DNA from: Halomonas citrativorans
GTDB lineage: Bacteria > Pseudomonadota > Gammaproteobacteria > Pseudomonadales > Halomonadaceae
Length of the DNA stretch: 64,000 nucleotides
Assembly: GCF_900163645.1 (NCBI RefSeq)
Contig: NZ_FUKM01000048.1
Span: 1-64,000, forward strand
Direction of reading: 5' to 3'
A program made the position numbers and the translations under genes. Below are positions 3 to 11,088 of this stretch, piece after piece. A model generated the notes under the pieces. That model was not told where the DNA came from and made no database searches. It was given only the letters and a program-made list of their open reading frames with translations. Numbering within the stretch: position 1 is the first letter of the stretch; every line of letters begins with the position of its first letter.

Positions 3-1151
3 GACGGTGCGGGTAATATGATCGAGCGGCAACAACCGGACGGCGAGCGCCTGACACTCGGCTACGACGGCGCCAACCGCCTGGTAAGCCTCACCCACAC
101 CCGCGCCTACGGTCATACCACGGAGGCCGCCTACCGCTACGATGGTCTGGGCCGCCGGATCAACAAGACCGTCCGCCACACCAACGGCACTACTGCCACT
201 ACCCACTTCGGCTGGGACGGTGACCGCATCGTGCGGGAAGAAAGTGACAGTCAGCGCTCGACCATCGTCTACGAGCTGGGCAGTTTTGTGCCCATGCTGC
301 GTATTGATGATACCCAGCAGGGCCAAATCCTCAGTGCTTTTGTCACGGATGCGCTGGGTACGCCCATGCAACTGGTTGCCGTCAACGGCGACACGAAATG
401 GCAGGCGCAGCCTGATGATTGGGCGGCGGTGAAACATCAGCGCGGCAATACAGCGCAGCCGATTCGCTTCCAAGGGCAGTGGCACGATGAAGAAAGCGGG
501 CTCTATTACAACCGTCATCGGTATTATGATCCGCAGCAAGGCAGGTACATTAGTCAGGATCCGATTGGGCTCAACGGCGGGACGAATTTGTATGGGTATG
601 TCGCTAATCCAACAGGGGCGGTGGACCCGCTAGGTTTAGTAGGCCAAGTATGTGCAATACCTGGTCCTACTATGGCGGCTTGCGCTTCTGCAGCGCAATG
701 GCTTGCAGGATTAGGAATGGCAGTGACTACAGCCGCTGTAGCTGTTATCTTTGGGCATAATTCTAGCGCGCAAGATGCGGATCAAATAGCCAATGTGCGC
801 CGTTCGGCGGCTGACATTAGTGAGCTCAATGAAAGGAATTCATCTCAAACATACTTCCACTATACCAATGAAGAAAACCTATCTTCAATTATGTCATCAG
901 GTGTTATACGAGCAGACAGCCGGAATCGTGTATTTATGACTACTGAGGGCAATTACTCTCCTGAAGTAGCTCAGCAAGCTCTTTTCATGGGTAGGAGAGG
1001 CCAAAGCGCAACACATATGATGTCTTTTCAACTGAGAGACGGTGTACAGTTATTACCTGGCACTCAACCTAATGAGTTAATTCACAACGGCTCACTAAGA
1101 ATTGGCCGACAAATTAAAAGTGTGACCTATGCCGGGCCCAATCTAAATTAA
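3..1151 (+). CDS. Rhs-family polymorphic toxin, 3' part (5' end outside window), ART-HYD1-like C-terminal domain
   Basis: The reading frame is already open at the window edge, and the first visible codons read as an Rhs/YD repeat, so this is the 3' end of a larger gene. Counting from the ATG at 18, YD repeats fill residues 1-150. The conserved core end lies at about 165-207, with SQDPIGL followed by the terminal DPLGL (ends near 638), the usual junction between Rhs core and variable toxin. The tail (about 639-1151) is clearly richer in AT. It has a hydrophobic stretch at about 222-246, then FHYT near 280-283, a G-V-I element and a VFMTT strand. This pattern resembles HYD1-type ADP-ribosyltransferase toxins (Tox-ART-HYD1), a moderately confident assignment by motif only. 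Rhs proteins are delivered by type VI secretion or related systems; a PAAR gene lies about 2 kb away. The next gene starts about 10-16 bp after the stop, as expected for an immunity gene. Confidence 0.88.
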   Translation, partial: DGAGNMIERQQPDGERLTLGYDGANRLVSLTHTRAYGHTTEAAYRYDGLGRRINKTVRHTNGTTATTHFGWDGDRIVREESDSQRSTIVYELGSFVPMLRIDDTQQGQILSAFVTDALGTPMQLVAVNGDTKWQAQPDDWAAVKHQRGNTAQPIRFQGQWHDEESGLYYNRHRYYDPQQGRYISQDPIGLNGGTNLYGYVANPTGAVDPLGLVGQVCAIPGPTMAACASAAQWLAGLGMAVTTAAVAVIFGHNSSAQDADQIANVRRSAADISELNERNSSQTYFHYTNEENLSSIMSSGVIRADSRNRVFMTTEGNYSPEVAQQALFMGRRGQSATHMMSFQLRDGVQLLPGTQPNELIHNGSLRIGRQIKSVTYAGPNLN

Positions 1152-1880: not shown

Positions 1881-2752
1881 ACCGCCCACACCCGCGCCGA
1901 CGGCTCGCTGCTCAAGCGCGACGAGAACGGCCAGGTGATCGGCCAGGTCACGTCGGATGGACAGCGCTGGACCCTCGAGCGCGACGCCATGGGCGATACG
2001 ACCAGCGCAGAAGGCCCCGAGCATCAGCGCTGGCAGATTACACGCAGCGAGCGCGGCCAGCGGCTGGCCACCCAACTGCCGGACGGCACCCACAGGCACC
2101 ACCACTATGACCCGCAAGGTCGCCTGGTCGAGCTGGAAGGCCCCCAAGTCTTCCACCAGCAGTTCTTCTTTGATGACCATGGCCGCCCGGTGCAACGTAT
2201 CGAGGCTGACGGCAGCCATCAAACCACAGCGTTTGATGACATCGGCCGCCTGAACGAACTCACGCTGGGCAATGGCGCGGTCTACCGCTTTGCCTATGAC
2301 GACATGGACCGCCTGGCCAGCGAGACCGGTCCGGATAATCGCGAGCAGCAGTACCGCTATGATGAGGCGGGCCAGTTGGTCGAACGCATCGAAGCTAACC
2401 GCACAGGACCGGATGGTCAGCCACTGGCCACGCGCTACGCGTATGATACCGCCGGTCGCTTGACCGCTCGCCATCTACCGGCCACCGAACACGCCCCGGC
2501 CAGCAGCGAACACTACCGCTGGGGTGCCAACGGTCAATTGGCGAGCGTGACCAACGACCATGGGGAAGTGACGTTCAGCTACGACCACGCCCAGCGGCTG
2601 ACTGGCGAACAGCAGCGGCATACCGGTATGGAAGGCGGCAGTGGCAGTGGCAGTGGCAGTGGCAGTGGCAGTGGCAGTGGCAGTGGCAGTGGCAGTGGCA
2701 GTGGCAGTGGCAGTGGCAAGAGACATTACCAGCCTAAGAGAAGCCTGAATAG
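1872..2752 (+). pseudogene. Orphan Rhs core fragment ending in a Gly-Ser hexanucleotide repeat
   Basis: From about 1872 the frame encodes YD/Rhs core repeats: ADGSLLKRDENGQV, then several YDxxGRL-type units such as YDPQGRLVELEG, FDDIGRLNEL, YDEAGQLVERI and YDHAQRLTGEQ. There is no Rhs start, and the core never reaches a DPxGL terminus. After residue GME the frame runs into 13 copies of GGCAGT encoding Gly-Ser, then a short unrelated sequence and a stop at about 2760. A GTG at 1935 could serve as a start but has no Rhs-like N-terminus. I read this as a displaced core fragment left by recombination or IS activity, not a functional gene. High GC here contrasts with the AT-rich DNA just upstream. 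Confidence 0.8.
2637..2714 (+). repeat. (GGCAGT)13 hexanucleotide tandem repeat
   Basis: Thirteen uninterrupted copies of GGCAGT lie inside the Rhs fragment frame and encode alternating Gly-Ser. They are followed by GGCAAG and then unrelated sequence. Because the unit is 6 bp, copy-number change would keep the frame. Perfect short repeats of this length are prone to slippage. The repeat sits at or next to the junction between the Rhs fragment and the transposase remnant. Confidence 0.97.
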
Positions 2753-2914
2753 ATGTGGTTAGTGGATCGTTTACAATGGTTGGAATTGCACCCGTTCGAC
2801 TCGGTTAGTCATGCCCAGGAACTCGCGACTGAGTGGCTATGGCAATACAATAACGAGCGGCCCCATACCGCTATCGGTGGTGTCCCTCCCCGGCAGCTAC
2901 TGATGACAGCTTAA
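2753..2914 (+). pseudogene. IS3-family transposase (OrfB) C-terminal remnant
   Basis: The frame ending at TAA 2912-2914 encodes about 53 residues with the C-terminal hallmark of IS3-family integrase-type transposases: WLWQYNNERPHTAIGGVPP followed by RQLL. The DDE catalytic core is absent, so only the 3' end of the gene remains. The ATG at 2753 is just the first one in frame after a stop. About 40 bp downstream the sequence reads AAATGGGGTGATGTCGACA, which resembles the subterminal end of such elements, but I cannot define the IS boundary or a target duplication. The element probably took part in rearranging the Rhs locus. Confidence 0.85.
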
Positions 2915-3076: not shown

Positions 3077-3352
3077 TTATTGACCAATAATGACCGTTCC
3101 TGAGCCGGTGATAACGGTATTGCCATGGGAGCCAACACTGCCCAAAATCGCGGCGGGTTTTCCGTTGACAAAGACTGTGGATGAAACTGCTTGAGTAATT
3201 GGGCTGCCACACGCGGATTCGTCGCCCAGCCTTGCAGCAGACAAACTGTCATAAAAAACATCCGGCGAGCCCTTTACCAATGGGTTTTTGCCATGCCCTG
3301 GTATAGGGCATGAGGTCATATCAGTAACACGTGCGGCTGGCTTTCCACTCAT
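3077..3352 (-). CDS. PAAR-domain protein (type VI secretion spike tip)
   Basis: A 91-residue protein that is essentially one PAAR domain: KPAARVTDMTSCPIPGH near the N-terminus, an AARLGDE segment, then VFVNGKPAAILGS and a C-terminal GSHGNTVITGSGTV. PAAR proteins fold into a metal-binding cone that caps VgrG spikes and carries effectors out through type VI secretion systems. There is no effector extension, so it would act as a stand-alone tip or adaptor. It lies 76 bp downstream of the DUF3686 ATPase gene on the same strand and about 160 bp from the transposase remnant, so it may belong to the Rhs island rather than to the ATPase cluster. No vgrG or other T6SS structural gene is in the window. 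Confidence 0.88.
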   Translation of the reverse strand: MSGKPAARVTDMTSCPIPGHGKNPLVKGSPDVFYDSLSAARLGDESACGSPITQAVSSTVFVNGKPAAILGSVGSHGNTVITGSGTVIIGQ

Positions 3353-3428
3353 GATAGAGCTCCTTACGAGGGTGACGTTTATTGATTAAATCTAATAGAA
3401 AAACGTATAGGTAAAACGTTAAGCGACA

Positions 3429-6400
3429 TTAGCTCTCCTCCGGCCTTGCCTTTCCCCACTGACCAATGCCTTCAGCAATCAAACTCAGTTGACGCACTAC
3501 CAGAGCACCGGTTTCCTCGTCTCCGCCCGTTAACTGCCGGCGCTGAAACTCACGCTTGATGCTCTCCCAGCGCTGGCGCTCTCCGTCATCCAACGTATCG
3601 CGCAGCTCTTTGAGTTTTAGCAGATTCTCTTCAGCGCCTTGGGTAAGCAGTTGCGCTTCGCCCACGTAGTGGTCGTCAATGATGGCTTCAAGTTCACTCT
3701 TACTGAGAATAGGCGATATCTTTTCTGCTAGACGATTCATGTTCCGGTAACTGCCTTGAAGCCGGAAAGGCGGCTCGGTACGGTACTCATCAGCCTGGGC
3801 ACTGGAGGCGATATACTGCTGATTGACGCGTAAAACCACTTCGCGCACTTTGAACATGTTCTTCAACACGGCTACGATCTCTTCACGTTCAGCAGCGCTG
3901 TAATCGTGTTCAAAATCGGTGCTGGGAACCTCGCGCCCTGCAGCTACATCGGCAAACCGATAGAAGTCGTCCAGCCCCCGCGTTGCCAGCGGCGCCAGCA
4001 CCGTGTTGGCGCTCATCGAGTTCTCGATATAGGAGAGCGCGAACACCTCCTCCATACCGCTTAGCACGTCACCAAGGTTATACACATCGGCGCGGTTGGC
4101 GAGCATATCGGGCACCTTGAATACGTCACCACTTTCCGTATATGGGTTACCCGCCATGGCGATACAGAAGCGTTTGCCGCGCATATCATAGGTTTGGGTG
4201 CGCCCGTTCCATATACCGTCAATGCGCCGACTGCCATCGCATAGTGAGATAAATTTCTGTAGAAATTCAGGGTGCGTATGCTGAATATCATCAAGGTAGA
4301 GCATGACGTTATTACCCATTTCAAACGCCAGATTGAGTTTAACGAGCTCAGCATGGGCAGTGGAGTGCGTAGCAGCTTCAGGATCTAGCGAAGTAACATC
4401 ATGGCCAAGACTTGGGCAGTTGATCTTCATAAAAATCAGCCCCAGACGATTAGCGACATACTCCATCAAGGTGGTTTTACCGTAGCCGGGCGGAGAAATC
4501 ATCATCAACAGACCGCTGTTATCGGTACGCCGAGTATCTCCTACGGTGCCCATCTGCTTGGCAAGGTTATCGCCAATGATCGGCAGGTAGCTTTCGGTAA
4601 TAAGCTTGTTGCGCACGAAGGAGTTGAGCGGCTTGGGCGTGTACTCTTCGAGTCGTAAGCGCTCGCGCTGCTCGCGGAGGATACCCTGGCGCCGCTCCTG
4701 AAGCGCTGACCAGTCTCGGATCACGACCTGCTGGTGGTGGCGTAACCGCTCCTGAAAATTATCCAACTGTAATGCCAGCTGCTGTTGGCCAAGCTGCTCG
4801 TGCTGGCCCAGCAGGCCCTCTACGGTAAAGGCTAGCTCAACGCTGTGCGGAACACTTTTAAGCCGGTCAGCGGTGTTGAGCATGGCAATGGCTTCGGGCA
4901 GGTAATGCAGCCACGCCTCCTGTTTGGCTTGCCGGGCATGGGCTTGAAGCCAGTGCGATGTGATCGTCCAACGTGCGCCGGGCTGGCCCATGACAACGGC
5001 CAATGCTTCTTGAAAATGCGCGTAGTGCCCTTGACGCTGCATAGTAGTGGTGAAGCTCTCCACCAAACTGGCAGCGTACTGCGTAACCGGAAAACTCTCG
5101 CCCTCCTCTGCCAGCTGGCGCACTAGATACTCATTGGCACTGGCCAATTGGCTCGGTGAGTAAGCAAGCTGATGCGTTTTAAGGAACGCTTCCAGCTGCG
5201 GCTCAACCTCTTGCATCAAGGCGCGAATCAAATCGTCGTTATCCATGATCCGACACAAAATACCGGCTGACAGACAGCGTGCCCTTAGGTTGCGCGCAGC
5301 GTTTTCATCGCGCAGACGATCCGCCCAAAAGAGCATCGCCAACGCCCTGGGCAGCGGCCCAAATCCAAGCAGCCCCGCGCTTTGGCGCGCAGGCCACAGC
5401 GTACGCACGATCAGCGCAGCGTCATGATCATGAATGCCTTTCTCATAGCCTTCTCGGTAGCGCGGGGAGGCAAAGTTGGCGATTTGTCGCTGCAATTCTT
5501 CAATATCTTCGACATTGACCTGCTTGGCCCCAGGTGTCGACAGCGTCTGCATAAACAGATAGGCGAGGTACTCAGCGCGATAGACAGCGCGGCTTTCCGA
5601 AGGCAGCGACATGTTCCAGTAATCATGCAGCTCCGTCAGGCGGGGATCTTCAAGAGGCTCGTAATATTGAGTACCCGTCAGGTGCAGCATAATGCGCTCA
5701 TCACGGGGCACCAGCGTCAGATCAAGGTTCTGCTGGTTAACACTAAAACGATGACGCGGCCCCAAGCGAATGACGTTGCCACCGGATTCATAAATATCGG
5801 CACGGTCTCGCACGCTGCGCATCGCTGCATCCTGCGACGCACGCAACCGCCCGGCGATATCATCCGCCTCAAGGTTGGCACCTATATTGCGCAGCTCATC
5901 CACCATGCTGCGCACTTTGCCCACCATGGCATCGGCGGCAAAGAAGCTATGCAACTCTTCCAGCGTTTCAAAGCGTTCCGTGCGGCGCGTAACATTGGCT
6001 AGAATGCGCTGGCTGGCATCGGCCAGGGTGGACACACGGCGCTGGCGTTCATCCTGAAGCTGCTGGCGCCGCCCTTCGATGCTTTCATGGGCGCTTTCAC
6101 GCTGCTCAAGAATCGTGGTCAGGAATTCATCGAACTCGCCGAACTGACTCTCCAGCTCCTGCAGTTGGTCGAGCATACGGGTCATTAGCTGGTCGCAATC
6201 GTCCGGCTCGCGTAACGCCCCTACCCCATTGGCAAGACTTTGCTCGAACAGACGGATTTGCGCTGCAAACTGCGCCTGGGCTTCGGCACTGCCCTGCTCG
6301 CGCAGACGAATCTCCGCTTCGGAACGCTGCTGGTTGATAGACGCATAAATACTCGAAATATTTTCGGTAATGCGCGTCTGCTCAATGGCATCGCCACCCG

Positions 6401-8363
6401 ACATGGAAGACAGCAGCCCTTGGATCATATCCAGCCCTGCGGTCAGCTCACGATAACGCGCAACATATTCTGCCAGCTGCAGGCGGGTTTCTGCCTCACC
6501 CACCTGCGCCTTAAGCTCTGCCAAGGTTTCACGGTAACCATCCAGCGCTTCAGGCTGAGCCAGAAAGGTAAAGGTCTGCTGTGTCAGCGATGCTTCAGCC
6601 TTATCCAAGGCTTGTTCCAGCGTTTGCAGGCGTTCTTCGTCAAGATAACGACGTTCCCGCAGCGCCATTAACCGCCCACGATGATCACGCAACCGCTTCA
6701 GATAGGTCACGAAGACATCGGGCGCTTTCCAGCTGCTGGGTTTCAGCTCACGCAGTAAGTCGGCCTGCTGTTTACCTACCTCTTCAAGCGCTTGAGCGGT
6801 CTGAGCGCGGATAGCCTGTACTTTTTCGTATTCGTCGAGCATCAACTCAGCGGTATGCTTGAGTTGTTCGAGCGCTTTATGGATAGCGCTAAAGTCAGGT
6901 TCGCCAATCCAGTAAAACTGATTCAGCGTTCGGTCGACGCGGCGAATAATGGCGTTGAAGTGCCGCTCGGTCGCCTGCTGTTCGCTGGATAACTGAACGA
7001 TGCTGTTGAGCTCAGCGATACCGCGCACCAGTTCCGGATTACCGATTCGCCCAAGCGGTGTATCGTTACGCACCGCGTCTTGTGCATGGAATCGCTCCGA
7101 CATAAACGGCGTGGCCCAGACCTGGATGGGATGAACCAGCGTTGGCTCTTCTTCGGCATAGAATATCGCCAGGTGTCCGTTTTCAAGCAGTGCCGCGCCG
7201 TGGCCAACCATCGGTGCATCCACCTGTTTGCGAATCAGGTTATAGCGGTACAGCACCACCTGCCCGGTTTGCGGTGCATAGAAGACGTAAAGAACATCTT
7301 CACCATTAGGCGAGCGCACCATGCGCTTGAAACGTAGATCCTCTTCAGGCACTTCATAGGTGGTTAGTTCGCCCGTATTCAGGTAGAACCCCGATGGAAA
7401 AATCAGGCCATGATTTTCCGGCAGCTCAATCACCGACCCTGCCATGGCATCGACACGCTTAACGTGTTGCTCAGCGCGGTTAAAAAGATAGTAACGCCAC
7501 TGCTTTTCGCTAAAAGGCAGGATGCGGATAAGCAATACCGCCCCCAGGTCGGCATATTCAAAGGTGGCATCGTCCAGGGACTGGGAGTCAGAATCGACCG
7601 GATCGGTAAAGATGCCTTCGCCGCTACTGGTGTTATTTTCGATCTTGAATGTGATGTTACCGCGCAGATTATCCACGAACACGGTATCAAGAATATTCAG
7701 GTGAGGCGCGCGCCCCTGCTCCTGCAAGTCGCGCCCCGCCTCTTGCCAGGCAAAAGCGAACCGCTCTGGAAACACCAAATCGCGCTCACCGCGATTATCG
7801 ATATAACGGTTTACCTCACCCTGAGCCGTCAACTCCCACCGAAAAACCCGCACATCACTGAGCTTTTCGCCAATCTGAAAAGCAATCAGCAGTTTGTTAT
7901 TTAGCGTTACCAGCCGCACCAGCGTGGCGTGACTGTAGTACTGCTGCAGTTCCCGGAAGTCCCGAGTGAACTGCTCATCGGTCAAGAAGCTGTCCGTGAG
8001 AGGCGCTTCTGCCAGCTCTAATCCGTCTTCATCGTCCTTGAGATAGTAAAGCGCAAAAATATCTTTAGCATCCAAGGCTTTACGCAGCCCCAGCTGCACA
8101 TTGAACCCAAACAAAATTTGATCGCCAATGCGCACCATGTCGCGAGCGATAGCGTTGTTTTCAGTACGCACCCGGGCACGGCCTAACAGCGCCATGCTGC
8201 TGCTTCCGAAAACGCCTGCGCGTGCTTCGTTCAACTGACCGACGGATGTATTCAGCTCACTGCCCTGAGCTCGCAGGCGGCGTTGAATGGTCTCGAATGC
8301 TGTGCTTTCTCTAACAATATTCTCGACCGACGACGGCTCCTTCGACATAGCGTCCTTCGACAT
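3429..8363 (-). CDS. Giant DUF3686-type AAA+ ATPase ('DNA repair ATPase')
   Basis: A protein of about 1,644 residues. The N-terminal half resembles the DUF3686 family (often labelled 'ATPase involved in DNA repair', without firm biochemical proof). The middle (about 470-900) is rich in predicted coiled coil (Glu/Gln/Arg/Leu). A AAA+ module follows, with Walker A PPGYGKTTL near residue 1295 and Walker B VMLYLDDIQH near 1355, then AMAGNPYTESGD as a sensor-like segment. An upstream in-frame start exists at 8402, but the ATG at 8363 has an AGGA at good spacing and is preferred; a second ATG at 8348 lies in a 15-bp duplication. It is followed on the same strand by a PAAR gene and preceded by flotillin and YqiJ-like genes, suggesting a membrane-associated complex. 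No signal peptide or membrane segment is seen, so it should be cytoplasmic. Confidence 0.82.
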   Translation of the reverse strand: MSKDAMSKEPSSVENIVRESTAFETIQRRLRAQGSELNTSVGQLNEARAGVFGSSSMALLGRARVRTENNAIARDMVRIGDQILFGFNVQLGLRKALDAKDIFALYYLKDDEDGLELAEAPLTDSFLTDEQFTRDFRELQQYYSHATLVRLVTLNNKLLIAFQIGEKLSDVRVFRWELTAQGEVNRYIDNRGERDLVFPERFAFAWQEAGRDLQEQGRAPHLNILDTVFVDNLRGNITFKIENNTSSGEGIFTDPVDSDSQSLDDATFEYADLGAVLLIRILPFSEKQWRYYLFNRAEQHVKRVDAMAGSVIELPENHGLIFPSGFYLNTGELTTYEVPEEDLRFKRMVRSPNGEDVLYVFYAPQTGQVVLYRYNLIRKQVDAPMVGHGAALLENGHLAIFYAEEEPTLVHPIQVWATPFMSERFHAQDAVRNDTPLGRIGNPELVRGIAELNSIVQLSSEQQATERHFNAIIRRVDRTLNQFYWIGEPDFSAIHKALEQLKHTAELMLDEYEKVQAIRAQTAQALEEVGKQQADLLRELKPSSWKAPDVFVTYLKRLRDHRGRLMALRERRYLDEERLQTLEQALDKAEASLTQQTFTFLAQPEALDGYRETLAELKAQVGEAETRLQLAEYVARYRELTAGLDMIQGLLSSMSGGDAIEQTRITENISSIYASINQQRSEAEIRLREQGSAEAQAQFAAQIRLFEQSLANGVGALREPDDCDQLMTRMLDQLQELESQFGEFDEFLTTILEQRESAHESIEGRRQQLQDERQRRVSTLADASQRILANVTRRTERFETLEELHSFFAADAMVGKVRSMVDELRNIGANLEADDIAGRLRASQDAAMRSVRDRADIYESGGNVIRLGPRHRFSVNQQNLDLTLVPRDERIMLHLTGTQYYEPLEDPRLTELHDYWNMSLPSESRAVYRAEYLAYLFMQTLSTPGAKQVNVEDIEELQRQIANFASPRYREGYEKGIHDHDAALIVRTLWPARQSAGLLGFGPLPRALAMLFWADRLRDENAARNLRARCLSAGILCRIMDNDDLIRALMQEVEPQLEAFLKTHQLAYSPSQLASANEYLVRQLAEEGESFPVTQYAASLVESFTTTMQRQGHYAHFQEALAVVMGQPGARWTITSHWLQAHARQAKQEAWLHYLPEAIAMLNTADRLKSVPHSVELAFTVEGLLGQHEQLGQQQLALQLDNFQERLRHHQQVVIRDWSALQERRQGILREQRERLRLEEYTPKPLNSFVRNKLITESYLPIIGDNLAKQMGTVGDTRRTDNSGLLMMISPPGYGKTTLMEYVANRLGLIFMKINCPSLGHDVTSLDPEAATHSTAHAELVKLNLAFEMGNNVMLYLDDIQHTHPEFLQKFISLCDGSRRIDGIWNGRTQTYDMRGKRFCIAMAGNPYTESGDVFKVPDMLANRADVYNLGDVLSGMEEVFALSYIENSMSANTVLAPLATRGLDDFYRFADVAAGREVPSTDFEHDYSAAEREEIVAVLKNMFKVREVVLRVNQQYIASSAQADEYRTEPPFRLQGSYRNMNRLAEKISPILSKSELEAIIDDHYVGEAQLLTQGAEENLLKLKELRDTLDDGERQRWESIKREFQRRQLTGGDEETGALVVRQLSLIAEGIGQWGKARPEES

Positions 8364-8367
8364 AGTG
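8338..8367. repeat. 15-bp tandem duplication spanning the ATPase start codon
   Basis: TCCTTCGACATAGCG (8338-8352) is followed directly by TCCTTCGACATAGTG (8353-8367), 14 of 15 identical. On the coding strand this duplicates the start region, giving MSKDA-MSKE with two in-frame ATGs (8363 and 8348). Confidence 0.9.
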
Positions 8368-8500
8368 TTCATCCTGAAAAAAGTGCTCAAGCGAAATAGC
8401 AAAGACCGCAGCGTGATGACACATGCGGTCTTGGGAAGGCTACGGAATATTCGGCTGTATCATGCCAAGCAAGGTGGCTCTTGATGAGCCGCCTCTTTTA

Positions 8501-10432
8501 TCAGGCCGATTCCGAGGACTTGCTCGACCCCATGGCACGGCTGGCAAGGCCTGCCAGCGTGGCTTGAAGCGCCGGGGACTTGTCGAGTACCCCCTGCACC
8601 GTCTTGCCATAGCCAAGGCCGGTGGCAAATTTTTCGAAGATATCGCCGTCGCCGCCAATCAGTTCGAACTTGGCATTGTGCAGAGCCGCCGACATGACCT
8701 TGCCATTTTCGAGCATGCCCGTGCGCTGTGCTTCAATTTGCGCCATGACTTCCTTCTCATGAACCTCCAGGTTCATGCGGAATTCTTCAAAGTGGCGCGC
8801 CTCTTCAGACATGTTGTCGTAAGCACGCAGTTTCTCGACCAAGCCATTCGCTTCGGCCTTGGCCATCGCTTCGCGGGCCTGGGCTTTTGCAGTACCCAGT
8901 TTCTCTTCGCCCATTGCTTCAGCTTCAAGGCGCTGTTCGAGCACACGCACTTCCGCCATACCCGTATCTTCATCGGCTTTAGCGGTGGCGGTTTTCACTT
9001 CAGCCAAGGCCATGCCTTCGCTACGCTGGGCGTGAGCGCGGGCTTCAAGCACTTGGGCTTCGGCCAAACCATCTGCTGCCAGCAACGCCTGCTGACCGCG
9101 TGCCTGCTTCTCTTCGGCCGCAGCGCGCTTCTCAGCAGAATCCAGCTCCGCCTGAGCACGGATGATGGTCTCTTCGGCTTCCAGTTTAGAACGCTCAAAC
9201 GCCGCTTCGGCTGCGCGCACTTCCTTGAGCTTGCTCTCTTCGGCAACCGCCTGCGCCGCCGTCAGGCTGGTGACCTTTTTACGCTCGGCTTCGGCGCGGT
9301 TGCGCACATCGTTGATGTTCTCTTCTTCTTCAGCCACATTCCGCTCAACGGCGATACGCTGGCTGGTGATATCGGCAATTTCCTTGCGCTCTTCTTCCAG
9401 CGCTTTTTCCATGCCGATACGCTCAATTTCTACCGCGCGCTCGCGGTTAACGTCTTCAAGCTCTCTGGCCTGACGGATCCGCACCTCCTCGATTTGTACG
9501 GCACGCTCGCGCGCCTTGGAGGCCATTTCAATCTGCCGCTGCTTGTTCTCTTCGGCAATCGCCAGCTCTTCGTCGGTCTTGATACGCGCCGCTTCACTCT
9601 TGGAACGCTCCTGATGAAGCACCTGCTCGGCTTCTGACTCTTCACGCGAACGCAGGCTTTCGATCTCACGACGCTGGCGAGCCTCCGCATCGGCCTGGGT
9701 ACGCTCAAGCTCTAACGCTGCTTCGCGGGCCGAGACATTCTTGCGCTGAATTTCGAGTTCCTGATCACGCTCCAAACGGTTGGTTTCAACATTGTGCTTC
9801 GCCGTAATTTCGGTGATGCACTTGATACCTTCAGAATCCAGAATGTTATGCGGATCAAGCGAGCTCTTGGGCGTCTGCTCCAGATAGTCAATCGCGACAT
9901 CTTCCAGCACATAGCCGTTCAGATCCTGACCAATGGTTTCGACGATGGCATCACGGAACTGCTGGCGTTCATCAAACAGCTGCATGAAGTCCATCTTCTT
10001 ACCGACGGTCTTCAACGCTTCGCTGAATTTGGCATTGAACAGTTCATTTACTGCATCGCGGTCAGACGCCCGGTTCACTCCCACCGACTTGGCTACACGC
10101 AGCACATCCTCAGCAGTGGCATTCACCCGCAGATAAAACGCCACGCTGATATCGGCGCGCAAGTTATCGCGGCAGATCAAGCCCTCTTTACCGGTACGGT
10201 TTAGCTCAAGGGTGATGACGGAAATCTTCATGATCTCCGCACGGTGAATAACCGGCAGTACCATCGCGCCGGTGAAATACACCTTAGGTGTCGTCGAGAG
10301 ATCATTGACGATCAGCGTCTCGCCCTGATCAATCTTGCGGTAAAACGCCTTGAACAGTGATAAGAGCGCCATGATAGCGACGACAATAACGCCAATGCCT
10401 ACTAACAGCGGCATAACCCACGATAAGTCCAT
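8501..10432 (-). CDS. yqiK: Flotillin-like SPFH protein, YqiK family
   Basis: A 643-residue protein with one N-terminal membrane segment (about 6-30), an SPFH/band-7 domain (about 35-205, including DQGETLIVND and NLRADISVAFYLRV), then a very long Glu/Ala/Arg-rich coiled coil (about 215-560) and a short Gly-rich C-terminus. This is the architecture of bacterial flotillins that form membrane microdomain scaffolds. The start has a strong GTAGGAG ribosome binding site. It lies between a YqiJ-like gene (23 bp upstream) and the DUF3686 ATPase gene, reading the same way. In E. coli yqiJ and yqiK are adjacent, which supports the name. What it scaffolds is unknown; the giant ATPase next door is the obvious candidate partner. 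Confidence 0.9.
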   Translation of the reverse strand: MDLSWVMPLLVGIGVIVVAIMALLSLFKAFYRKIDQGETLIVNDLSTTPKVYFTGAMVLPVIHRAEIMKISVITLELNRTGKEGLICRDNLRADISVAFYLRVNATAEDVLRVAKSVGVNRASDRDAVNELFNAKFSEALKTVGKKMDFMQLFDERQQFRDAIVETIGQDLNGYVLEDVAIDYLEQTPKSSLDPHNILDSEGIKCITEITAKHNVETNRLERDQELEIQRKNVSAREAALELERTQADAEARQRREIESLRSREESEAEQVLHQERSKSEAARIKTDEELAIAEENKQRQIEMASKARERAVQIEEVRIRQARELEDVNRERAVEIERIGMEKALEEERKEIADITSQRIAVERNVAEEEENINDVRNRAEAERKKVTSLTAAQAVAEESKLKEVRAAEAAFERSKLEAEETIIRAQAELDSAEKRAAAEEKQARGQQALLAADGLAEAQVLEARAHAQRSEGMALAEVKTATAKADEDTGMAEVRVLEQRLEAEAMGEEKLGTAKAQAREAMAKAEANGLVEKLRAYDNMSEEARHFEEFRMNLEVHEKEVMAQIEAQRTGMLENGKVMSAALHNAKFELIGGDGDIFEKFATGLGYGKTVQGVLDKSPALQATLAGLASRAMGSSKSSESA

Positions 10433-10455
10433 TTTCTTCTCCTACATCCAAGCAG

Positions 10456-11088
10456 TTAATCGGCTAAGCCGGTTTTAAAGTCCTTCTCAGGCATTACCCA
10501 GTAAGCGTCTTCGTCGGCGAGATAATGAATTAGAATGGCACGGTCGCCGCGCGCTAAGGGCGTATCACTGCGAATCTGTAATATCAGGTGGTCACCTTCG
10601 ATATAGGCATCGGCTCGGCCCCGCGCTCTATCAACACTGCCAGAACGCACTGTACACAGCGTACCAGTTAAGCGCTTCTCAGCGGACAGGTGCTGGGCAG
10701 GTTTAAATAGAGGGCGTAAAGGGCGAATCACAAAAGAGGTAACGAAGATGCCTATGGCAAAACTAGCCAGAAGTAAGACAATATGAAACAGCCAAAGTAA
10801 CAAACCAGGACTAAGTTGTGCGCCTAAAAGAAGCTCACCAAAATAACTAAATAACCAGCCGCCTAAAGCGACGAGCGTAATCACTAACGGCAGTGGTACA
10901 CCCTGAAGACCCAGCGTTGCCAGCAAACCGCCGACCCCCATGGCGCCATCACTGCCCAAGTCTCCCTCTGGCACATCGCTATCGACCATACCGGATAGCG
11001 AAATAAGCCAATAAATAACGGCAATGCTTAACAGCACGGTAAAAATGACGGTTGGAAAACCAGTGATAATAGAAAAAAATAGAGGCAT
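10456..11088 (-). CDS. yqiJ: YqiJ-like membrane protein with predicted OB fold
   Basis: A protein of about 210 residues with three hydrophobic segments: FPTVIFTVLLSIAVIYWL near the N-terminus, VITLVALGGWLFSYF in the middle, and LLWLFHIVLLLASFAIGIF. A soluble C-terminal half follows (about 135-210: GTLCTVRSGSVDRARG, AILIHYLADEDAYWV) that fits the OB-like domain of YqiJ and NfeD-type flotillin partners. An upstream in-frame start at 11229 would add 47 residues of poor quality; the ATG at 11088 begins directly at the first membrane helix and is preferred. NfeD/YqiJ proteins are usually encoded beside flotillins and are thought to bind them. It is the first gene of the three-gene cluster. Confidence 0.8.
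   Translation of the reverse strand: MPLFFSIITGFPTVIFTVLLSIAVIYWLISLSGMVDSDVPEGDLGSDGAMGVGGLLATLGLQGVPLPLVITLVALGGWLFSYFGELLLGAQLSPGLLLWLFHIVLLLASFAIGIFVTSFVIRPLRPLFKPAQHLSAEKRLTGTLCTVRSGSVDRARGRADAYIEGDHLILQIRSDTPLARGDRAILIHYLADEDAYWVMPEKDFKTGLAD

What the first reader, a model, noticed from the sequence alone, without database searches (positions are those of the whole stretch)
3077..11088. DUF3686 giant ATPase / YqiK flotillin / YqiJ cluster as an uncharacterised membrane machine
Three same-strand genes combine a membrane OB-fold protein, an SPFH scaffold with a coiled coil of about 340 residues, and a AAA+ ATPase of about 1,640 residues that itself has long coiled coils. Flotillin-NfeD pairs are known, but the role of the giant ATPase in such clusters is not established. 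The design recalls ATP-driven remodelling at membrane microdomains; defence or envelope repair are possible. A PAAR gene follows on the same strand.
Basis: partly seen in the sequence, partly recalled or inferred. Interest (0 to 1): 0.65.

Follow-up and report, generated by a model that had tools for sequence, protein, structure and literature searches.

The report
Flotillin and giant ATPase stress cluster
A bacterial gene cluster pairs a flotillin membrane scaffold with a giant ATP-driven motor that, in the genomes examined, goes with a membrane-repair protein related to ESCRT-III; the arrangement was already described from genomes, but I found no experiment that tests its function.

Summary
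In detail: on the minus strand lie a YqiJ/NfeD-like membrane protein, a YqiK-type flotillin and a 1,644-1,657-residue DUF3686 AAA+ ATPase. It is no chance neighbourhood: in 90 of 91 loci with at least 3 kb upstream the order YqiJ-YqiK-ATPase is kept. Nor is it a new discovery: Ravi et al. 2024 (PMC11237479, passages) describe this operon, alone or joined to a CesT/Tir chaperone (YjfI) and the ESCRT-III relative PspA. What I add: (1) all 23 ATPase-positive Pseudomonadota genomes found have this flotillin and a YjfI gene, 15 of them outside the ATPase locus; the only PspA-family gene found in the window's genome lies in a yjfIJKLMC-type run on another contig. (2) Plasmid pQBR103 carries both modules as one run of genes. 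(3) The motor models best on MoxR-type AAA+ (CbbQ, NorQ), behind a beta-propeller. (4) ATPase-linked flotillins have a conserved C-terminal tail missing from E. coli YqiK, a candidate docking site. Best explanation: an ATP-driven remodeller of a flotillin-PspA scaffold in envelope stress (inferred). Defence is not supported, and the PAAR gene is incidental (2 of 100 loci).

The parts
10456..11088 (-). YqiJ/NfeD-like inner-membrane protein, 210 aa, several hydrophobic segments (about 1-37, 52-84, 86-124) and a C-terminal soluble part
   Evidence: ORF; hydrophobicity; profile match to E. coli YqiJ prob 89%, E 2.3e-6; BLASTP finds no similarity
8501..10432 (-). YqiK-type flotillin (SPFH), 643 aa, one N-terminal hydrophobic segment (1-34), long charged region, conserved C-terminal tail about 526-625
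   Evidence: Band_7; 26% identity to E. coli YqiK over 441 columns, E 8e-37; tail conserved in 90 ATPase-linked YqiKs but not in E. coli YqiK
3429..8402 (-). Giant AAA+ ATPase, DUF3686 family, 1657 aa from TTG (1644 aa from ATG at 8363)
   Evidence: PF12458 570 bits; no hydrophobic segment over the threshold used
7107..8201 (-). beta-propeller domain of the ATPase (residues 55-419 of the 1644-aa form)
   Evidence: AlphaFold2 model pLDDT 87.2; closest solved folds are WD40 propellers, top Z 9.5, rmsd 4.0, 160 aligned (DCAF1), a modest Z
3684..4658 (-). AAA+ motor domain (about residues 1236-1560): Walker A SPPGYGKTT, Walker B LYLDDIQH, sensor 1 AGNPYTESG, Arg finger LANRAD, sensor 2 GSYRNMN (roles assigned from recalled motifs)
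   Evidence: AlphaFold2 model pLDDT 89.3; best fold CbbQ2 Z 17.5, NorQ Z 16.5; motif residues invariant in 105 of 105 aligned sequences, sensor 2 in 104
3077..3352 (-). PAAR protein, 91 aa: next to the cluster but not part of it
   Evidence: PF05488; found next to the ATPase in only 2 of 100 other loci, L035 and L043

Best explanation
The cluster encodes an ATP-driven remodeller of a membrane scaffold used in envelope stress. YqiK, helped by the YqiJ/NfeD-like protein, forms an oligomeric flotillin cage or patch on the inner membrane (inferred from the families). The cytosolic ATPase docks on it, probably through the conserved C-terminal tail of YqiK and the ATPase's own propeller and coiled coils (inferred). 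Its MoxR-type AAA+ ring then uses ATP to assemble, extract or recycle membrane-bound clients, of which the ESCRT-III-like PspA, with its CesT/Tir-type chaperone YjfI, is the likeliest (inferred from gene context). In this genome the YjfI-PspA pair is supplied in trans by a yjfIJKLMC-type run on another contig. Shown here: gene order, co-occurrence, modelled folds, intact catalytic motifs, the tail. Not shown: any interaction, ATPase activity or client.
For: Same-strand YqiJ-YqiK-ATPase in 90 of 91 loci with at least 3 kb upstream; PspA and YjfI both in the locus in 55 of 88 loci with at least 6 kb upstream. Relatives: the 12 of 58 genomes with DUF3686 are the 12 with a full-length YqiK match; one more genome has a partial YqiK match and no ATPase. 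The other 11 ATPase-positive genomes also have this YqiK, including G233, whose ATPase stands alone and whose YqiK is on another contig. DUF2170 (YjfI) in ATPase-positive versus -negative genomes: 12/12 vs 22/46, 7/7 vs 12/267, 8/8 vs 42/390; Fisher P 6e-4, 2e-9, 4e-8, samples overlapping and not corrected for kinship. Of the 15 genomes with YjfI outside the ATPase locus, PspA is next to YjfI in 14. The only PspA-family gene found in the window's genome is that YjfI-linked one. pQBR103: YjfI-PspA-rhomboid-DUF2491-DUF350-DUF1190-GSP synthase-YqiJ-YqiK-ATPase on one strand (the 'hypothetical' gene matches the YqiJ profile at E 2e-67). Hymenobacter plasmid: Tir chaperone-PspA-DUF1449-flotillin-ATPase. 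Plasmids: the 12 records with the ATPase are the 12 best-ranked of 311 with a YqiK match, on the same strand within about 6 kb in 12 of 12. Precedent: B. subtilis SPFH protein YdjI is needed to localise PspA (PMC8581546, abstract and Discussion).
Against: No biochemical data. The motor resembles MoxR-type proteins more than Vps4, so the ESCRT/Vps4 comparison is functional only. The YjfI dependence was tested only in Pseudomonadota; a Streptomyces and a Deinococcus plasmid locus have flotillin and ATPase with no annotated PspA or YjfI within about 8-12 kb. G233 has YjfI without PspA beside it on the contig piece held, and L034 has YjfI but no PspA match. Within the window's genus the YjfI association is weak (8/8 vs 17/29, counted by hand). 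In 6 genomes of that genus the YjfI gene lies on the same contig as the ATPase, 63-86 kb away, so 'in trans' there may partly reflect a shared region. P. aeruginosa has a YjfI-PspA-NfeD-SPFH operon for which no ATPase is mentioned (PMC10948618, passages; the word has 0 occurrences), and E. coli has yqiJK and a DUF2170 gene without DUF3686 (controls), so the scaffold can work without it. No sigma-54 promoter link was found.
Confidence: 0.5

Rival explanations
1. MoxR-type assembly chaperone: the ATPase matures or inserts metal or cofactor into membrane enzyme complexes, as MoxR-type proteins are thought to do for their targets (recalled), with flotillin only as a platform; PspA is a parallel stress response and not the client.
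For: Best structural matches are CbbQ2 (Z 17.5, rmsd 3.8, 252 aligned) and NorQ (Z 16.5, rmsd 3.9, 241 aligned). SO1377 of Shewanella (COG2268, next to a DUF1449 gene) has iron-metabolism and peroxide phenotypes on deletion (PMC1468410, passages).
Against: MoxR proteins usually have a VWA-domain partner (recalled); none was noticed, though none was searched for. No enzyme gene is as often beside the cluster as PspA and YjfI.
Confidence: 0.25
2. Membrane-protein quality control, analogous to the FtsH-HflKC cage: flotillin corrals membrane proteins and the AAA+ unfolds or extracts them, sometimes passing them to a linked rhomboid protease.
For: Rhomboid-like gene in 22 of 100 loci (21 same strand), Pfam Rhomboid in 19 of 149 neighbour proteins and in the pQBR103 run. 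Interaction of HflK/C and of YbbK with FtsH is mentioned in PMC2636767 (passages); the cage around FtsH is recalled.
Against: 78 of 100 loci have no rhomboid match, and the ATPase has no protease domain in Pfam. PspA and YjfI (57 of 100 each) are linked more often than rhomboid.
Confidence: 0.15
3. Anti-phage defence machine.
For: Patchy distribution: 8 of 37 genomes in the genus (own genome included) and 7 of 274 in the class sample; weak LmuB coiled-coil similarity (E 1.4e-4); single neighbours with strong AbiD and MzaA matches.
Against: No recurrent defence gene beside it apart from PLD-type (DrmC-like) matches in 9 and MkoB in 3 of 149 neighbour proteins (no control set); no viral or phage relative; linkage to stress genes.
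Confidence: 0.05
4. DNA-repair ATPase, as the Pfam description and the plasmid annotation ('DNA repair ATPase') say.
For: Pfam text for PF12458 and plasmid annotations.
Against: Motor is AAA+ nearest to MoxR type; partners are membrane proteins. Weak sequence matches to RuvB exist, but at the Walker A region only.
Confidence: 0.03

Closest known systems
CesT/Tir-PspA + band-7/flotillin + beta-propeller AAA+ ATPase + YqiJ/YuaF operon, and its abbreviated form (Ravi et al. 2024, PMC11237479, passages)
   Same: Same three proteins as the abbreviated operon; PspA homologue elsewhere in the genome, as the authors suggested might be the case
   Different: Here the partner elsewhere is found and its co-occurrence counted; rhomboid is not mentioned in the main text (0 occurrences), nor a MoxR affinity in the passages I read; supplements not read
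P. aeruginosa bac operon (PMC10948618, abstract and passages)
   Same: YjfI-family BacA, PspA-like BacB, NfeD (BacC) and SPFH (BacD; both by PMC13086221 passages) in one operon; biofilm and rhamnolipid phenotypes
   Different: The word ATPase does not occur in the paper, but I did not see what BacE and BacF are; sigma-54 site proposed there, not found here
B. subtilis pspA-ydjGHI (PMC8581546, abstract and Discussion)
   Same: SPFH protein needed to recruit PspA to the membrane
   Different: No AAA+ ATPase in the parts I read; different membrane partners (YdjG, YdjH)
E. coli yqiJ-yqiK
   Same: Gene order and homologous proteins
   Different: No ATPase beside it; YqiK lacks the conserved tail
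ESCRT-III/Vps4 (Snf7 plus Vps4)
   Same: Idea of an AAA+ enzyme acting with an ESCRT-III family polymer
   Different: Motor fold is nearest to MoxR and dynein types; no MIT domain in Pfam; propeller and coiled coil instead

Membership tests
DUF3686 (PF12458) | Full-length match of the 448-position profile | tested here: met
   1-448 of 448, 570 bits, cut-off 25
AAA+ ATPases | Walker A, Walker B, sensor 1, Arg finger, sensor 2 | tested here: met
   Invariant in 105 of 105 aligned sequences (100 loci, the window, 4 plasmid loci), sensor 2 in 104; the residue after the first Walker B Asp is Asp, not the usual Glu, in all 105. Roles assigned by me from recalled motifs
MoxR-type AAA+ | Closest fold | tested here: met
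   CbbQ2 Z 17.5, NorQ 16.5, dynein 15.3, ClpA 13.5; shows fold only
MoxR-type AAA+ | Pre-sensor-1 beta-hairpin (recalled criterion) | tested here: met
   Strands 531-536 and 539-544 between helix 516-526 and strand 550-556 of the model
MoxR-type AAA+ | Helix-2 insert (recalled criterion) | tested here: inconclusive
   Model shows a short helix and a loop, no clear insert, between strand 461-466 and helix 485-500
MoxR-type AAA+ | VWA-domain partner (recalled criterion) | not tested
   None noticed; no VWA search made
Vps4 | N-terminal MIT domain | tested here: not met
   No MIT match in Pfam at E 0.001; the N-terminal part models as a helix and a propeller
Flotillin/YqiK (SPFH) | Band 7 domain and homology to E. 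coli YqiK | tested here: met
YqiJ/NfeD | Homology to YqiJ, membrane segments and OB-type domain | tested here: inconclusive
   Profile match prob 89%, E 2.3e-6; no Pfam or BLASTP match; fold not predicted
CesT/Tir-PspA-flotillin-AAA+ operon (Ravi 2024) | YjfI and PspA in the same operon | tested here: not met
   Found only on contig C32 of the genome, the cluster being on C9. The paper allows abbreviated operons without the pair
Known anti-phage systems | Match to a PADLOC family | tested here: inconclusive
   Only weak LmuB hits in the ATPase, E 1.4e-4 and 0.031; none in the other three proteins
Type VI secretion cargo | Conserved linkage to PAAR | tested here: not met
   PAAR in 2 of 100 loci; Rhs linkage was not counted

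The most novel reading that the evidence does not exclude
A bacterial counterpart of ESCRT-III/Vps4, built from a different motor: a propeller-bearing MoxR-type AAA+ ring that docks on the C-terminal crown of a dedicated flotillin cage and disassembles or reloads PspA polymers at damaged membrane, with the YjfI-PspA module (joined to glutathionylspermidine-synthase-type genes in this genome) as its partner half.
Probability: 0.3. Interest if true: 0.8.

Novelty: new member of a known kind. Interest (0 to 1): 0.5.

Why it matters
Ravi et al. write that it is unknown how PspA homologues without an associated AAA ATPase regulate assembly (passage). A regular partner ATPase, a dedicated flotillin subfamily and a plasmid carrying the whole set make the question testable. 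It would also give a bacterial case in which flotillin scaffolds are actively remodelled by ATP.

Tried and rejected
Sigma-54 promoter shared with bac and psp operons: 1 of 49 loci upstream of YjfI and 1 of 38 upstream of YqiJ, against 28 of 1740 mononucleotide shuffles; none upstream of the window's cluster or of the own yjf run. Rejected.

Defence island: PADLOC on the four window proteins and on 149 of 561 candidate neighbour proteins; 15 of the 40 matched families were not shown and no control set was scanned, so this is absence of a clear signal and not a measured depletion.

PAAR link: rejected. Phage origin: no match in phages; in viral contigs 26 stretches fitted the peptide patterns and none was confirmed.

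Solved relatives by sequence: the best stretches of the ATPase C-terminal profile lie at the Walker A region of Cdc48/Rix7/RuvB-type proteins; N-terminal, YqiK and YqiJ profiles had no meaningful match. Foldseek TM-scores were low for both models (TMq at most 0.25), so fold statements rest on the VIA Z-scores. Vps4, katanin and spastin are not among the 50 VIA rows shown; spastin is at Foldseek ranks 48-50. That does not exclude them.

yjfKLMC homologues inside the 100 loci: none by phmmer with the own genome's or with pQBR103's proteins as queries; the positive control (pQBR103 proteins) was found. The joined arrangement is so far known to me only from pQBR103.

Full report
What is there. The ATPase is 1,657 aa from a TTG or 1,644 aa from the ATG at 8363. 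The host is probably a Vreelandella/Halomonas species: the closest named locus is Vreelandella aquamarina (91% identity); the species was not determined.

Is the arrangement more than chance? L037 and L053 hold the same ATPase, so 99 are distinct. YqiK is present on the same strand in 96 of 100 (94 full length, 2 fragments) and YqiJ in 91 of 100. Where at least 3 kb lies upstream, both are present in 90 of 91. The exception, L025, is a true stand-alone ATPase; its genome G233 has the YqiK on another contig. The other absences lie at contig edges.

Co-occurrence by genome. DUF3686 is patchy: 12 of 58 relatives, 7 of 274 in the class sample, 8 of 398 in the phylum sample, 0 of 14 control genomes. 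In the 58 relatives a full-length YqiK match is found in exactly the same 12, and one more genome, G383, has a partial match (profile 4-466 of 656) and no ATPase. All 11 further ATPase-positive genomes have the YqiK. In the plasmid collection the ATPase motor occurs in 12 records, and these are the 12 best-ranked of 311 records with a YqiK match, same strand and within about 6 kb in 12 of 12. Of the 12, 11 cover at least 80% of the query and one, a Streptomyces, 63%; the 12 listed records that follow, without the ATPase, cover 44-63% and the rest are not listed.

The PspA link. YjfI (DUF2170, a CesT/Tir-type chaperone) and PspA are both in the locus in 55 of 88 loci with at least 6 kb upstream. 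The window's own locus lacks them. But all 23 distinct ATPase-positive genomes in the three samples have a DUF2170 gene: 12/12 against 22/46 of the rest, 7/7 against 12/267, 8/8 against 42/390. In 15 of the 23 the gene is outside the ATPase locus, and in 14 of these 15 PspA lies beside it; G233 is the exception. In 6 of the 15, all of the window's genus, it is on the ATPase's contig, 63-86 kb away; in the other 9, the window's genome among them, it is on another contig. The own genome has one PspA-family match, on contig C32, in the run DUF2170-PspA-DUF2491-DUF350-DUF1190-GSP synthase, that is, the yjfIJKLMC type. The Fisher values ignore kinship and the samples share genomes; within the genus alone the contrast is weak (8/8 against 17/29, counted by hand). 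The strongest single support is plasmid pQBR103, where the complete yjf run, with a rhomboid gene in it, is followed on the same strand by a YqiJ-like gene, the SPFH gene and the ATPase. A Hymenobacter plasmid has Tir chaperone, PspA, DUF1449, flotillin, ATPase. Against this, Streptomyces and Deinococcus plasmid loci show flotillin and ATPase with no annotated PspA or YjfI nearby.

Anatomy of the ATPase. Residues 1-545 model with pLDDT 87 as helices, a beta-propeller (55-419) and the start of a long helix; the nearest solved folds are WD40 propellers, top Z 9.5 (rmsd 4.0, 160 aligned), a modest value that agrees with the propeller named by Ravi et al. Residues 850-1644 model with pLDDT 89. The motor's nearest folds are the MoxR-type proteins CbbQ2 (Z 17.5) and NorQ (Z 16.5), then dynein (15.3) and ClpA (13.5). 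Walker A, Walker B, sensor 1 and Arg-finger residues are invariant in 105 of 105 sequences. The second acidic residue of Walker B is Asp in all, where most AAA+ have Glu (recalled), which may matter for turnover. Median identity to the window protein is 70% in the motor, 50% in the propeller, 38% in the coiled-coil and middle regions: motor and propeller are the most conserved parts.

Anatomy of the flotillin. It is related to E. coli YqiK (26%, E 8e-37). In 90 ATPase-linked members residues about 526-625 are conserved (for example EEFRM.LE and IVGG.G.FF), and E. coli YqiK shows almost no match there; the profile comparison also stops before it. Eukaryotic flotillins form a cone-shaped cage (PMC11260169, start of the abstract in the listing only). 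If YqiK does the same, this C-terminal tail may sit at the free end, a natural docking place. That is inference.

Accessory genes. Rhomboid-like genes occur in 22 of 100 loci and small TerB-like proteins in 15 of 100 (the name TerB is my reading of the sequence; Pfam gave only weak hits, EF-hand type first). By sequence clustering, a PLD-type family occurs in 18 of 100 loci, a zinc-ribbon family in 20 and an unnamed family of about 110 aa in 15 (one or two members of each were scanned with Pfam). A PLD-type gene was noted by Ravi et al.; 'rhomboid' and 'TerB' have no occurrence in that paper's main text, and no held paper has rhomboid, SPFH, PspA and bacteria together.

Known or new. Ravi et al. 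[quoted passage not shown] The window's cluster is such an abbreviated form. The names DUF3686 and PF12458 occur in no held paper. New here, as far as those searches show, are the genome-level support for that guess, the MoxR affinity (no held paper has MoxR, flotillin and AAA+ together), the ATPase-linked flotillin tail and the joined pQBR103 arrangement; the supplements of Ravi et al. were not read.

Mechanism. I commit to ATP-driven remodelling of a flotillin-PspA scaffold in envelope stress (0.5). That an SPFH protein recruits PspA is shown in B. subtilis (PMC8581546, abstract and Discussion). That the ATPase docks on YqiK and acts on PspA is inferred. The main rival is a MoxR-like assembly chaperone with another client.

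Noticed in passing
window 18-1151 and 1935-2762 (+): Rhs pieces beside the PAAR gene; one has a weak, sub-threshold ADP-ribosyltransferase-like hit (Tox-ART-HYD1, E 0.0028), and the other ORF runs into a long Ser-Gly repeat near its end, perhaps a disrupted Rhs gene.
   Followed up: no
L029 (G139): The ATPase gene is interrupted by a stop and reads as 89 + 1583 aa, possibly a decaying copy.
   Followed up: no
plasmid collection: 228 Escherichia plasmid records carry a YqiK-like match, and none is among the 12 with the ATPase; 259 of the 311 plasmids with a match are classed as conjugative.
   Followed up: no
L036:13559-14167 (+), L039:11697-12245 (+), L146:1740-2294 (+): Rhomboid-family protein just after the ATPase (L036, L039) or between PspA and DUF2491 (L146), with an apparent GxSG motif in L036 and L039; not mentioned in the main text of Ravi et al. 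2024.
   Followed up: partly
L087, L099, L114, L117: between PspA and YqiJ: Small protein of about 110 aa, family found in 15 of 100 loci on either strand; the one member scanned had no Pfam match; it may be a ribbon-helix-helix type regulator (my guess).
   Followed up: partly
L145: In a Streptomyces plasmid the flotillin-ATPase pair lies about 4 kb from a TerD gene, which hints at a link to tellurite-type stress systems.
   Followed up: no
G314, G659, G660, G663, G672, G675: In six genomes of the window's genus the YjfI gene lies 63-86 kb from the ATPase on the same contig; in Halomonas sp. PA16-9 the PspA gene is about 77 kb away. A shared island or chance: not tested.
   Followed up: no
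ATPase residue 1359 of the 1644-aa form: Asp replaces the usual catalytic Glu of Walker B in 105 of 105 aligned sequences; the effect on hydrolysis is unknown.
   Followed up: partly
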